Assembly (NCBI GenBank): GCA_031272505.1
Contig: JAISTQ010000020.1
Span: forward strand, 62,001-126,000
DNA from: Propionibacteriaceae bacterium
GTDB taxonomy: Bacteria; Actinomycetota; Actinomycetes; Propionibacteriales; Propionibacteriaceae
Direction: 5' to 3'
DNA length: 64,000 nt
Shown here piece by piece: positions 31,425-43,207 of the stretch. Under the pieces are notes generated by a model that searched no databases, was not told the DNA's origin, and worked only from the letters and a program-made list of their open reading frames with translations. The translations under genes were made by a program, and so were the position numbers. Position 1 is the stretch's first letter. Every line of letters begins with the position of its first letter.

Positions 31425-31916
31425 TCAGAAGGAGGCGGCGTTCGCTTCGGCGACCAAATCGAGTTCGACGGGGGTGTTCATGGGGAGTTCGGCGACGCCG
31501 ATGGCGGTGCGGGCATGGCGGCCCCGGGAGCCGAAAACCTGGATCAGGAACTCGGAGGCGCCGTTGGCCACCGCGGGCTGATCGGTGAAGCCGGGAGCGG
31601 AGTTGACGTAGACCGTCAGCTTCAGGATGCGGCGCAGCCCGTCCACCCCTTCGACGACGGAGGCGGCCGCCGCCAGCGCGTTCAACGCCGCGATGCGGGC
31701 CAACTCCTGGCCTTGGGCCACGGTGATCTCCGCGCCCAGTTTCCCGGTGGCGGGCAGCTTGCCATCCACAAACGGAAGCTGGCCGGACGTGATCACCTGG
31801 CCCGACGCGGTGATCGCGGGCACATATGCGGCCACCGGCGTAGGCACGGCGGGAAGCGTCACTCCCAGCTCGGCGAGGCGCTGGGAGACCGGTACCTCGT
31901 TCAGCTCTTCGTTCAT
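31425..31916 (-). CDS. RidA-family protein (YjgF/YER057c/UK114)
   Basis: 163 aa from the ATG at 31916, overlapping the gpmA stop by 4 bp. It carries an N-terminal extension, then the chorismate-mutase-like fold with [25 protein letters not shown] and [23 protein letters not shown]. The canonical Arg of RidA (in RTAIGV) that binds substrate carboxylate is present. RidA deaminates reactive enamine/imine intermediates, but the longer family members vary in activity. It is translationally coupled to gpmA. Confidence 0.87.
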
Positions 31917-32656
31917 TTCTTGCCCTGGTTCTTCACGGCCTCGATAGCCGCCTTCGCCGCTTCCGGATCGAGGTAGCGCGACGAGATCGGCTTCAAGGCG
32001 TCGTCCAACTCGTAATAGAGCGGAATGCCGGTGGGGATGTTCAGCCCGGCGATGTCGGCATCCGAGATGCCGTCCAGGTGCTTCACCAGCGCCCGCAGCG
32101 AGTTGCCGTGCGCGGCCACCATCACCACCTTGCCCTCGTTCAGATCGGGGACGATGGCGTCGTACCAGTAGGGCAGCATCCGCTCCACCACGTCCGCCAG
32201 GCACTCCGTCAACGGCCGCAGCTCCGGCGGCAGATTCGCATAGCGCGGATCGTTGAACTGCGAGTATTCGTCGTCCGCCGCGATCGGATCCGGCGGGATG
32301 TCATAGGAGCGCCGCCACTGCATGAACTTCGCTTCGCCGTACGCCTCCAGCGTCTGCGCCTTGTTCTTTCCCTGCAAGGCGCCATAGTGACGCTCGTTCA
32401 GCCGCCAGGAGCGACGCACCGGGATCCAGTGCCGATCACAGCCGTCCAACGCCAGATAGGCGGTGTGGATCGCCCGGCGCAACACGGAAGTGTGCACCAC
32501 GTCAGGCAGCAGCCCCTCGGCCAGCAGCAGCTGCGCGCCGCGTTTCGCCTCGCCGACGCCCTTCTCGTTGATGTCCACATCCACCCAGCCGGTGAACAGA
32601 TTCTTGGCATTCCATTCGCTCTCGCCATGGCGGAGCAGTATCAGTTTCGAAGTCAT
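31913..32656 (-). CDS. gpmA: 2,3-bisphosphoglycerate-dependent phosphoglycerate mutase
   Basis: 247 aa glycolytic enzyme interconverting 3- and 2-phosphoglycerate. [18 protein letters not shown] holds the phosphorylated His10; [24 protein letters not shown] and the second catalytic His in [14 protein letters not shown] are all present. TAGCCT (32663-32668) lies six bases upstream of the ATG, giving a leaderless start. Confidence 0.96.
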
Positions 32657-32715: not shown

Positions 32716-32806
32716 GCCGCGCGTATACGGCGGTGATGTGGTCAGCGGCTACCGCTATCACATTTTCCAACCCTTTTGACGGACCAAATGTAACGTTTTC
32801 CAAGAT
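32716..32806 (-). pseudogene. Deletion scar of an AAA+/DUF4143 ATPase cassette
   Basis: Read on the minus strand this region repeats both ends of the ATPase locus at 41.7-43.1 kb, joined directly. First come GGAAAACGTTACA (32801-32789) and, exactly 33 bases on, GGAAAATGTGATA (32768-32756), matching two boxes and the start-codon box of the intact cassette. Then GGTAGCCGCTGACCACATCACCGCCG-like sequence matches the intact gene's 3' end at 24 of 26 positions. The coding body is missing. This suggests an internal deletion between short GC-rich repeats. The rest of 32657-33111 has no gene. Confidence 0.65.
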
Positions 32807-32998
32807 CTGCGCGGGGCTACGCCCGTGATCGAGGTTCAGATTTGAGGTCTTGCACTTTCGATCGGCGTGTCACGACAACAACTCATCACCGTAGAACGGG
32901 ACGGGACCACGAGCACAGAGTTCTAGCGAGGTGAGACGGTTTGAGGACTGCAAATGGCAATGCAACCACAAGCTCACGCGCCCAGCTCCTCCGATTCA

Positions 32999-33052
32999 CC
33001 AGCAGATCCAGACCTAACTTGTCCAAACGGAAGTTAGGTCCCAATTTGCTGG
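32999..33052. repeat. Long imperfect inverted repeat upstream of proC
   Basis: GACCTAACTT (33011-33020) and AAGTTAGGTC (33031-33040) form a perfect 10-bp stem with a 10-base loop. Pairing continues outward: CCAGCA (32999-33004) with TGCTGG (33047-33052). It lies 60 bp before the proC ATG, with TAGGAT (33078) between. It could be a mobile-element remnant, an operator or an RNA hairpin. Confidence 0.6.
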
Positions 33053-33111
33053 TCGGCGCGGGCCGTTGGGGGCTGCGATAGGATGGCGCAAGCCGAAGAA
33101 GGGGGAGAGAC

Positions 33112-33906
33112 ATGACTATCGCGATTCTGGGTGTCGGGGTGATGGGTGAGATCATCCTGGGCGGGCTGTTGGCTTCGGGGACGGAGCCGAGCGACATTCG
33201 GGTGACCACCCGGCGGCCGAAACGCCAAGTGCGGCTGGCCGAGCAATACGGCGTCACCGTCACTTCGAACGCGGAGGCGGTCGTCGGCGCGGACACTGTG
33301 CTGATCTCGGTGAAGCCGCAAGACGTGACCGACATCCTCGCCGAAATCTCGCCCGCGCTGGCCCCGGACGCGCTGGTGGTCTCGGTGGCTGCCGGGGTGA
33401 AGACCTCGTCAATCGAAGCCGGGCTGCCCGCTGGACACGTGGTGGTGCGGGTGATGCCCAACACTCCGGCGAGCGTCGACGAGGGCATGGCCGCCATCTC
33501 CGGCGGAAAAAATGCCACCCGCGAGCATTTAGACCGGGTTAGCGACATCCTCACCGCCGTCGGCCAGGTGATGATCGTGCCCGAGAAATACCAAGACGCG
33601 GTGACGGCTATCTCCGGCTCCGGCCCCGCCTACGTGATGTTCGTGGTGGAGGCGATGATCGACGCCGGAGTGCTGCTCGGCCTGCCGCGCGCCACCGCCA
33701 CCGAGTTGGTGATCCAGACAGTCTTCGGCGCCGCCAAGCTGCTGCGCGACACCGGCGAACACCCCACCATCCTGCGCGAGAACGTCACCTCGCCCGGCGG
33801 CACCACCACCCGCGCCATGCGCGCCTTCGAAGACCACCGCGTCAAAGCCGCCTTCATGGACGCCCTCGAAGCCGCCGCCCTCCGCAGCGAAGAACTCGGG
33901 AGTTAG
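33112..33906 (+). CDS. proC: Pyrroline-5-carboxylate reductase
   Basis: 264 aa. Last step of proline synthesis with NADPH. The N-terminal Rossmann loop ILGVGVMGEIILGGLL, the VRVMPNTPASVDEGM segment and the signature SGSGPAYVMFVVEAM with TSPGGTTTRAM are present. GGGGGAGA precedes the ATG. It is close to gltA-acn-icd and proB-proA, which complete the route from citrate via glutamate. Confidence 0.95.
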   Translation: MTIAILGVGVMGEIILGGLLASGTEPSDIRVTTRRPKRQVRLAEQYGVTVTSNAEAVVGADTVLISVKPQDVTDILAEISPALAPDALVVSVAAGVKTSSIEAGLPAGHVVVRVMPNTPASVDEGMAAISGGKNATREHLDRVSDILTAVGQVMIVPEKYQDAVTAISGSGPAYVMFVVEAMIDAGVLLGLPRATATELVIQTVFGAAKLLRDTGEHPTILRENVTSPGGTTTRAMRAFEDHRVKAAFMDALEAAALRSEELGS

Positions 33907-41235: not shown

Positions 41236-41602
41236 ATGGTGCGGGTGCGCTACGGCGGCTCAGGCGGGGTGCCCTTCACTGTGGACGGCAAAACGACTAC
41301 GCCGGCAACCAGATACGTAGCCCAACTCGACGGTGACGGCGAAGCTGGCCAAGGCCACGGTGAAGTCTTCGGCGAAAGCGTCGGTGAAGGTGACGGTGAA
41401 GGCCACCGGTTTGAAGCCGGGCGGCAAGGTGAAGGTCACGTATGGGAAGAAGTCGGTGACCGCGACGGTGAAGTCCGGCAAGGCGACGGTGAAGCTGCCG
41501 AAGCTGAAGAAGGGCAAGTACACCCTGAAGGTCACCTATCTGGGCTCCACCGAAACGAAGAAGGCCACCTACAAGAAGACCCTGAAACTCAAAGTCAAAT
41601 AA
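41236..41602 (+). pseudogene. Remnant of an Ig-like-repeat surface protein
   Basis: In the frame starting GTG at 41333 the translation reads KATGLKPGGKVKVTYGKKSV, then VKLPKLKKGKYTLKVTYLGS and a Lys-rich end: one bacterial Ig-like domain of the sort repeated at the C-termini of secreted actinobacterial proteins. No signal peptide or long upstream frame exists; that frame has a stop at 41318. The neighbouring frame (41236 on) gives VPFTVDGKTTTPATRYVAQLDG, which fits the piece just before it, so a frameshift is likely. Only the end of a larger gene survives. Confidence 0.5.
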
Positions 41603-41604
41603 CC

Positions 41605-41659
41605 ATGAGCGGTTCCGGCGGCCACTGATCGCGGATCAACGCTGGAACTGCTCATTCTT
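41605..41659 (+). repeat. Inverted repeat family A, copy before the ATPase
   Basis: ATGAGCGGTTCC (41605-41616) pairs with GGAACTGCTCAT (41644-41655) with one mismatch. It resembles the hairpin at 12946-13002 and begins three bases after the stop of the Ig-like remnant. Directly downstream lies the left 36-bp direct repeat of the ATPase cassette. Confidence 0.6.
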
Positions 41660-41695
41660 CGCGCCCGCAGCCCTGTTCCCCGTTTCGTTCTTGGA
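41660..41695 (+). repeat. 36-bp direct repeat, left boundary of ATPase cassette
   Basis: These 36 bases (starting CGCGCCCGCAGCCCTG, ending CGTTCTTGGA) are identical to 43172-43207. The two copies enclose the ATPase gene and its promoter, 1512 bp from copy to copy. Confidence 0.85.
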
Positions 41696-41771
41696 AAACG
41701 TTACATACAGACACCTTTTCAACATGGAAAATGTTACAATTGACTCGTCGAAAGGGTTGGAAAATGTTACA
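41693..41771 (+). promoter_or_regulatory. Three GGAAAAYGTTACA boxes at exact 33-bp spacing
   Basis: GGAAAACGTTACA starts at 41693, GGAAAATGTTACA at 41726 and again at 41759. The step of 33 bp is close to three helical turns, so a bound protein would sit on one face of the DNA. The third box contains the ATG of the ATPase gene; AAAGGG before it can serve as ribosome binding site. The likely role is control of the ATPase, possibly by the ATPase's own product, but that is inference. Confidence 0.7.
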
Positions 41772-43065
41772 GCGGAAGGCTTGGGAGCGGCTGGTCCAGT
41801 GGAAGGAGCGGACGGCGCCCACCGGGTTGTTGATCACGGGTGCTCGGCAGGTGGGTAAGACGTTCTTGGTGCAGGAGTTCGCCAAGAAGCACTACTCCAG
41901 CTTCGTTGAGATCAACTTGGTTGAGAATCGGAAGGCTGCGGGGATCTTCGACCAAGCGCAGGATGCAGCCGATTTGTTCGCCCGCATCTCGTTGACTGCC
42001 GGGGCTGAGTTGATTCCGGGCGAGACGCTCATCTTCATCGACGAAGTGCAAGTGGCCAAGGAAGTGGTAACCGGCGTCAAGTTCCTCGTCCAGCAGCACG
42101 ATTATGACTTCATTCTCTCCGGTTCGATGTTGGGGGTGGAGTTGCGTGATGTCCGCTCGGTGCCGGTGGGCTATCTCGATGTGGTGGAGATGTTCCCGAT
42201 GGATTTCGAGGAGTTCGCCTGGGCGAACGGGGTGAGCCAGCAGCTGTTCGCCGATGCCGTTGCGGCGGCACGGCAGCGAGAGCCAGTGCCCGAGTATCTG
42301 CATGAGCGGCTGTTGGAACTGTTCCACAAGTACCTGATCGTAGGTGGGATGCCTGCCGCGGTGGACGAGTTCACCCGCACCTCGAACTTGCAGCAGGTTC
42401 GCCGCATCCAGGAGAACATCATCCAGTTGAACCGGTGGGACATTTCCCAATACGCCAAACGGGACGCGCTAGCCATCAAGGAGATCTACGACCTGATCCC
42501 TTCCGAGCTGAATCAGCAGAACAAGCGGTTCGTGTTGAAGAACCTCAACCGGCACGGGCGCTTCAACCGCTACGAAGAGAAGTTCGTGTGGCTGGCCGAC
42601 GCCGGCGTGGCACTGCCGGTCTATAACGTGACCGAACCCACCTACCCGTTAAAGCTGTCCAGCCAGTCGAACCTGTTCAAATTGTTCATGGCCGATGTGG
42701 GCCTGCTCACCAGCACCTTCATCAAGGACGTCTCGGAGCGGATCCTCGCCAAACATCCCGACATCAACTATGGCTCGATCTATGAGAACGCGGTGGCCAC
42801 GGAGTTCGCCGCCCAGGGCCGCAGCCTGTACTTCTACCGCAACAAGCGCCTCGGCGAAGTGGACTTCATCATCGAGAAAGACGACGGCACCGTCATCCCC
42901 ATCGAGGTGAAATCCGGCAAGACTTACGACCGGCACGTCGCTATAAACAACCTGCTCACCAGCCCCGACTACCGGATCCCCGAAGGAATCGTCCTCGCCG
43001 AAGCCAACGTCACCACCCACGACAAAGTAACCTACCTCCCCATCTACCTCGCCGGTAGCCTCTAA
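41764..43065 (+). CDS. AAA+ ATPase with DUF4143 domain
   Basis: 433 aa from the ATG at 41764 (an ATG at 41731 is also possible and lies in the second box). The N-terminal ATPase has Walker A GARQVGKT (26-33) and Walker B TLIFIDEVQ (Asp93, Glu94). The C-terminal half is DUF4143 with a GEVDFIIE...IPIEVKSGK segment that looks like a PD-(D/E)xK nuclease core. Proteins of this kind are common, often in multiple copies, and poorly understood; mobile or defence-linked roles are suspected. Direct repeats bound the gene and a decayed relative lies at 32.7 kb. Confidence 0.88.
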   Translation: MLQRKAWERLVQWKERTAPTGLLITGARQVGKTFLVQEFAKKHYSSFVEINLVENRKAAGIFDQAQDAADLFARISLTAGAELIPGETLIFIDEVQVAKEVVTGVKFLVQQHDYDFILSGSMLGVELRDVRSVPVGYLDVVEMFPMDFEEFAWANGVSQQLFADAVAAARQREPVPEYLHERLLELFHKYLIVGGMPAAVDEFTRTSNLQQVRRIQENIIQLNRWDISQYAKRDALAIKEIYDLIPSELNQQNKRFVLKNLNRHGRFNRYEEKFVWLADAGVALPVYNVTEPTYPLKLSSQSNLFKLFMADVGLLTSTFIKDVSERILAKHPDINYGSIYENAVATEFAAQGRSLYFYRNKRLGEVDFIIEKDDGTVIPIEVKSGKTYDRHVAINNLLTSPDYRIPEGIVLAEANVTTHDKVTYLPIYLAGSL

Positions 43066-43098
43066 CCACATCACCGCCGCACACATTATTCGGGAAAA

Positions 43099-43207
43099 AT
43101 GAGCAATTCCGGTGCCGCCTGATCGCGGATGACGGCAAATGGGTGCCTGGAGACTCACCTCTCGGACTTCGCGCGCCCGCAGCCCTGTTCCCCGTTTCGT
43201 TCTTGGA
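43099..43207 (+). repeat. Family A half copy plus right 36-bp direct repeat
   Basis: ATGAGCAATTCCGG at 43099 and CTGATCGCGGAT about 20 bases later match the left flank of the cassette. The end, 43172-43207, is identical to 41660-41695. The right arm of the hairpin is degraded. This fills the gap between the ATPase and the biotin carboxylase gene. Confidence 0.75.

What the first reader, a model, noticed from the sequence alone, without database searches (positions are those of the whole stretch)
32716..32806. Scar of a second ATPase cassette with the coding region deleted
On the minus strand two boxes 33 bp apart are followed directly by sequence matching the 3' end of the intact ATPase gene (24 of 26 bases around its stop). 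The open reading frame between is gone. Retention of the control boxes after loss of the gene shows the family multiplies and decays in this genome, and the leftover boxes could still titrate the regulator.
Basis: seen in the sequence. Interest (0 to 1): 0.66.

Follow-up and report, generated by a model that had tools for sequence, protein, structure and literature searches.

The report
Deletion relic of a defence-candidate ATPase
Beside a sugar-metabolism gene lies a 76-base remnant of a lost ATPase gene of a very common but untested anti-phage candidate family: only its two control boxes and the last bases of the gene are left, and similar leftover control boxes occur in unrelated bacteria.

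Summary
On the minus strand, 32803-32728 is a gap-free 76-nt fusion of the two ends of the intact DUF4143 ATPase cassette at 41.7-43.1 kb: 43/52 matches to 41724-41775 (two boxes 33 bp apart and the first codons), joined at a CGG shared by both ends to 22/24 matches to 43056-43079 (stop codon plus 14 bp). The total is 65/76; the next best place in the window scores 37 and shuffles at most 40. About 1280 bp of ORF is missing. Neither end occurs elsewhere in the genome. The simplest reading is an internal deletion of a second, diverged cassette. Whether it decayed in place or arrived already deleted cannot be told: no relative read has proC next to gpmA. "Multiplies in this genome" overstates it (one intact copy, one scar); titration is untested. 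Two wider results. The ATPase belongs to PDC-S01, a widespread, unvalidated phage-defence candidate; 33 of 43 homologues across phyla carry upstream direct repeats (31 at 32-34 bp) with differing boxes, often over the -35. Orphan arrays occur elsewhere: L057 keeps 114 bp of cassette front (93%) without its ATPase; L051/L053 have a two-box copy behind the gene. I read the arrays as autoregulatory operators (inferred).

The parts
32771..32803 (-). Scar repeat unit A: box TTGGAAAACGTTACAT plus spacer; corresponds to intact unit 2 (26/33), its first 16 nt identical to intact box 1
32752..32770 (-). Scar box B with the former start region (TTGGAAAATGTGATAGCGG; intact TTGGAAAATGTTACAGCGG). Both differences make stop codons (TGA, TAG) after the old ATG
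32752..32754 (-). CGG shared by both arms: deletion junction (intact 41773-41775 and 43053-43055; 1280 bp between absent)
   Evidence: read from the sequence
32728..32751 (-). Remnant of the ATPase gene 3' end: last codons, stop (TGA in place of TAA) and 14 bp beyond (22/24)
31913..32656 (-). gpmA-type phosphoglycerate mutase (His_Phos_1), the gene downstream of the scar on the same strand
33112..33906 (+). proC-type pyrroline-5-carboxylate reductase on the other side; not next to gpmA in any relative read
41691..41773 (+). Intact control array: three boxes starting at 41691, 41724 and 41757, 33 bp apart, the third holding the ATG at 41764
41764..43065 (+). Intact AAA_14-DUF4143 ATPase (433 aa), PDC-S01 family
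43066..43079 (+). CCACATCACCGCCG: 14 bp after the stop kept 14/14 in the scar; right limit of the shared cassette
41660..41695 (+). Left copy of an exact 36-bp direct repeat that flanks the intact cassette and ends inside box 1 (TTGGA)
43172..43207 (+). Right copy of that 36-bp repeat, 106 bp after the stop

Best explanation
The feature is the internally deleted relic of a second cassette of the PDC-S01/DUF4143 ATPase now intact at 41.7-43.1 kb. A cassette is a tandem array of operator-like boxes, the ATPase ORF and a few bases past the stop. Shown: both cassette ends are present at 32803-32728, fused at a CGG found at both breakpoints, with about 1280 bp of ORF missing; the remnant differs by 14% from the intact copy and has stops after the old start. 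Inferred: a deletion between short identical sequences removed the ORF from a diverged copy that sat upstream of gpmA, and the remnant then drifted. Inferred for the boxes: each PDC-S01 gene carries its own tandem boxes about three helical turns apart over its promoter or start, and they serve as an operator bound cooperatively by the ATPase itself or a dedicated factor, so the gene stays low until induced. The orphan box pair would keep some affinity for that factor but probably has no strong role now.
For: 65/76 gap-free match to the composite of both cassette ends against 37 for the next place and at most 40 for shuffles; both arms unique in the genome; box pair absent from the other genomes of the phylum searched apart from background-level hits. 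Homologue pairs in different surroundings share the array plus ORF and little else, starting at the first box and ending at the stop (L044/L069, L034/L045), the same limits as between scar and intact copy. Repeat score at least 12/14 upstream of 33 of 43 homologues against 14 of 472 control pieces, period 32-34 in 31 of the 33. The -35 TTG lies in a repeated 12-mer in 17 of 31 loci with a promoter call, against a 31% background. Independent relic: L057 4463-4576 matches the array front of L031/L039 at 92-93% over 114 bp, the two boxes included, stops at the -10 and has no ATPase after it, and those boxes occur nowhere else in that genome.
Against: No strain or relative with an intact copy at gpmA is available, and the gpmA-proC junction is unique to this genome among those read. 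Searches of 16 genomes with other boxes found arrays only at ATPase genes, so relics are not common everywhere. No binding or expression data exist; that the ATPase binds its own boxes is inference. A standard sigma-70 scan finds no promoter in the scar region.
Confidence: 0.8

Rival explanations
1. The 76-bp unit is a mini-element (MITE-like): a deleted cassette that moved to gpmA in deleted form, carried by the ATPase of an intact cassette acting on the two ends.
For: Scar and intact copy share sharp limits at both ends (TC plus box 1 on the left, 14 bp after the stop on the right), and array-plus-ORF units recur in different surroundings elsewhere.
Against: No convincing target-site duplication at scar or intact copy, no terminal inverted repeats seen, no transposase domain, and only one copy of the mini-form in the genome.
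Confidence: 0.08
2. The leftover boxes have been kept as a working regulatory site, placing gpmA under the control of the ATPase or its regulator in trans.
For: The boxes lie on the gpmA strand about 100-150 bp upstream of its start and keep the 33-bp spacing; in RptR two direct repeats suffice for full repression (PMC12255303).
Against: gpmA keeps its own start-proximal -10-like TAGCCT/TAGGCT seen in relatives without boxes (read by eye); box B has changed at two positions and unit A at seven; no promoter call in the region.
Confidence: 0.08
3. The arrangement is chance or a gene-conversion patch rather than a cassette relic.
For: The second arm alone is short (24-26 bp), and the 14-mer ACCACATCACCGCC has one further exact match in the genome.
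Against: Composite 65/76 against at most 40 in shuffles; the 26-mer has no third copy; two separate cassette ends in the right order, strand and distance are not expected by chance or from one conversion tract.
Confidence: 0.02

Closest known systems
PDC-S01 (PADLOC phage-defence candidate, AAA_14-DUF4143 ATPase)
   Same: The intact gene matches a PDC-S01 profile over its whole length (1.4e-185); abundant, horizontally spread, experimental validation pending (PMC12988326, PMC13356809).
   Different: I found no description of tandem 33-bp boxes or of relic arrays for this family in the papers searched.
RptR direct-repeat operator of a phage-defence island
   Same: Direct repeats over the promoter of a defence locus; two repeats are enough for full repression.
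   Different: RptR is a separate 9-kDa repressor with 9-bp repeats close together over the -10; here the boxes are about 14-19 bp at 32-34 bp spacing, often over the -35, differ from gene to gene, and no small regulator was identified.
MITEs and other internally deleted mobile elements
   Same: Both ends kept, middle lost.
   Different: No inverted repeats, no target duplication, a single copy.
Walker-type archaeal ATPases 2qen / 2fna and ORC/Cdc6, TnsC-type AAA+ ATPases
   Same: Fold of residues 1-320 (VIA-align Z 16.3 and 15.1, rmsd 5.0 and 4.3; ORC, Cdc6 and TnsC among Foldseek hits).
   Different: Shared fold shows no function; the C-terminal part with the conserved D367...E381-x-K383 pattern was hardly covered by these matches.

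Membership tests
PDC-S01 / AAA_14-DUF4143 ATPase (intact parent gene) | AAA_14 and DUF4143 domains over Pfam cut-off; PADLOC PDC-S01 profile over full length | tested here: met
PDC-S01 / AAA_14-DUF4143 ATPase (intact parent gene) | anti-phage activity | not testable with these tools
   literature calls it a candidate with validation pending
Deletion relic of a PDC-S01 cassette | both cassette ends present in the right order and strand | tested here: met
   43/52 left, 22/24 right, gap-free
Deletion relic of a PDC-S01 cassette | intact copy at the same site in another strain | tested here: inconclusive
   site unique to this genome; no second strain held
MITE-like mini-element | target-site duplication | tested here: not met
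   nothing beyond a 5-bp CGCGC out of register
MITE-like mini-element | several copies in the genome | tested here: not met
   one copy
Autoregulatory direct-repeat operator (RptR-like in working) | direct repeats over the gene's own promoter or start | tested here: met
   for the family; for the window gene (third box holds the ATG)
Autoregulatory direct-repeat operator (RptR-like in working) | repressor that binds the repeats | not testable with these tools
   needs binding or reporter assays

The most novel reading that the evidence does not exclude
PDC-S01 genes are portable array-plus-ORF cassettes, each with a private 33-bp-spaced operator, that are repeatedly lost by deletion while the operator is left behind; such orphan arrays, here upstream of gpmA, can draw neighbouring genes into the network of a defence ATPase or act as decoys for it.
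Probability: 0.2. Interest if true: 0.75.

Novelty: new variant of a known kind. Interest (0 to 1): 0.5.

Why it matters
The scar itself is an ordinary deletion relic. It marks the limits of the cassette (first box to just past the stop), and following it showed that one of the commonest untested phage-defence candidates carries a conserved tandem-box control region whose sequence changes from gene to gene. That gives a direct handle on how PDC-S01 is regulated, which I found described nowhere, and orphan arrays give a record of past cassettes that gene annotation misses.

Tried and rejected
Target-site duplications or terminal inverted repeats at scar and intact copy: none convincing. Orphan arrays in 6 Bacteroidota and 10 mostly Bacillota genomes searched with their own boxes: only the arrays at ATPase genes matched. 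An ATPase or box next to gpmA in relatives: none; gpmA neighbours differ from species to species. Known RNA family at the scar: none (only sub-threshold hits to a palindrome at 33000-33051). Solved homologue by sequence: none. Promoter or terminator consensus in the scar region: none. The repeats in L032 (4567) and L059 (4539) have a 33-bp period without an ATPase after them, but I could not tie their sequence to a known cassette, so they are not counted as relics. The excess of 33-35-bp repeats in flanks over other periods is modest by count alone; the case rests on sequence identity in L057 and L051/L053. The PD-(D/E)XK nuclease reading of the C-terminus rests on the D367/E381/K383 pattern, not on a fold match.

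Full report
Observation. The minus strand at 32803-32728 reads TTGGAAAACGTTACATTTGGTCCGTCAAAAGGG TTGGAAAATGTGATAGCGG TAGCCGCTGACCACATCACCGCCG. The two boxes start 33 bp apart. The last 26 bases match 43054-43079, around the stop of the intact ATPase, at 24/26, and no third copy exists in the genome within three further mismatches.

More than chance. I joined 41724-41775 (intact units 2 and 3 with the first codons) to 43056-43079 (stop region) and slid this 76-mer over both strands. The scar scores 65/76 without gaps (43/52 and 22/24); the next best unrelated place scores 37, and 300 shuffled versions reach at most 40. The box pattern occurs nowhere else in the 2.23-Mb genome. In 396 genomes of the phylum the spaced pair is found in this genome and as two single hits elsewhere, the same number as the reversed-pattern control gives.

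What happened. Both breakpoints carry CGG (41773-41775 and 43053-43055), so the join is what a deletion between short identical sequences would leave; 1280 bp is missing. The scar has two units where the intact array has three; its first unit begins like intact box 1 (16/16) and continues like unit 2, as slippage between units would give. The scar differs from the intact copy by 14%. Its stop is TGA instead of TAA, and the two changes in box B create TGA and TAG directly after the old ATG. These fit a relic of a diverged copy that has drifted since.

Where it sits. The scar is between gpmA and proC. In the 19 relatives whose gpmA surroundings were read, proC is not the neighbour; many have a short-chain-dehydrogenase-like reading frame there instead (read by eye), and none has boxes. 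The junction is therefore special to this genome and the proposed test (an intact copy next to gpmA) cannot be run: one genome per species is held. The closest homologues of the ATPase are only 60% identical (a Clostridia genome), 52% (Bifidobacterium hapali) and 51% (a species of the same genus), which suggests horizontal acquisition. The six other DUF4143 loci of the genome belong to other subfamilies and lack these boxes.

The wider pattern. The intact protein is an AAA_14-DUF4143 ATPase and matches PADLOC's PDC-S01 over its full length. PDC-S01 is reported as the fourth most common defence across prokaryotes, with experimental validation pending for most such candidates (PMC12988326), and as the most frequent individual locus in rumen genomes (PMC13356809). 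Upstream of 33 of 43 homologues from many phyla I find a direct repeat of at least 12/14, against 14 of 472 control pieces; the period is 32-34 bp in 31 of the 33. Box sequences differ between genes: TTGCGCTTTTTTAATATTT, TTGCGTATTAAG, TGCGCATTGCAG, TTGGATAATGTAAC and others. Where a sigma-70-like promoter can be called, the -35 TTG falls in a repeated stretch in 17 of 31 loci against a background of 31%. Pairs of homologues in different surroundings share the array plus ORF and lose similarity at the first box and at the stop (L044/L069, L034/L045). In closer pairs such as L033/L039 similarity runs on past the stop, so the right limit is not fixed in all subfamilies.

Other relics. L057 carries an intact cassette of one subfamily and, behind it, 114 bp that match the array front of another (93% to L031, 92% to L039), two boxes included; the match breaks off at the -10 and no ATPase follows. 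Those boxes occur nowhere else in that draft genome. L051 and L053 have a two-box copy of their own array directly after the ATPase stop, with no ORF behind it on that strand. In L067 the ATPase front is replaced by what looks like the end of an IS605-type element (identified by eye). The intact window gene is itself flanked by an exact 36-bp repeat that ends inside box 1. Orphan boxes are thus seen in at least three lineages (this genome, L057, L051/L053), though not everywhere they were sought.

Mechanism. Tandem boxes about three helical turns apart over the promoter or the start codon are most simply an operator for cooperative binding and autoregulation. The described case nearest in working is RptR, which represses a defence island through three direct repeats, two being enough (PMC12255303). 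The AlphaFold model (mean pLDDT 88.9) has an AAA+ part that matches archaeal Walker-type ATPases 2qen and 2fna best, with ORC/Cdc6 and TnsC among the hits; DNA binding would be in keeping with this but a shared fold does not show it. That the ATPase is the binding factor is inference. For the scar I consider a present role unlikely: gpmA keeps its own start-proximal -10-like element and the remnant has drifted. Titration needs an assay.

Verdict. Its main value is that it led to a conserved control array of a very common defence candidate and to further orphan arrays.

Noticed in passing
41660-41695 and 43172-43207: Exact 36-bp direct repeat on both sides of the intact ATPase; the left copy ends inside box 1, so recombination between the copies could remove the cassette. 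An older 81% repeat (41605-41636 / 43099-43130) lies outside each copy.
   Followed up: partly
43123-43173: Part of a dispersed repeat family with copies (81-88% identical) on several other contigs of the genome.
   Followed up: no
32998-33053: Imperfect palindrome (23-nt arms, 83%, 10-nt loop) between the scar and proC; no Rfam family reaches its cut-off.
   Followed up: partly
L057:4463-4576: Array front of another PDC-S01 subfamily (two boxes 33 bp apart) without an ATPase, next to an intact cassette.
   Followed up: yes
L051:4367-4420 and L053:2603-2656: Two-box copy of the gene's own array directly after the ATPase stop.
   Followed up: partly
L032:4567-4650 and L059:4539-4625: Three-copy repeats of 33-bp period without an ATPase behind them; not tied to a known cassette.
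   Followed up: partly
L067:60-212: IS605-type element end appears to interrupt a PDC-S01 ATPase that is 97% identical to the L057 gene.
   Followed up: partly
L143:3001-4194: Unannotated PDC-S01-like stretch on a Segatella copri plasmid lacking its N-terminus in the match, beside WYL and DUF262 genes.
   Followed up: no
41300-41600: Short repeat-rich coding-like stretch just upstream of the intact ATPase that looks like part of an Ig-like repeat protein, without an obvious full-length ORF.
   Followed up: no
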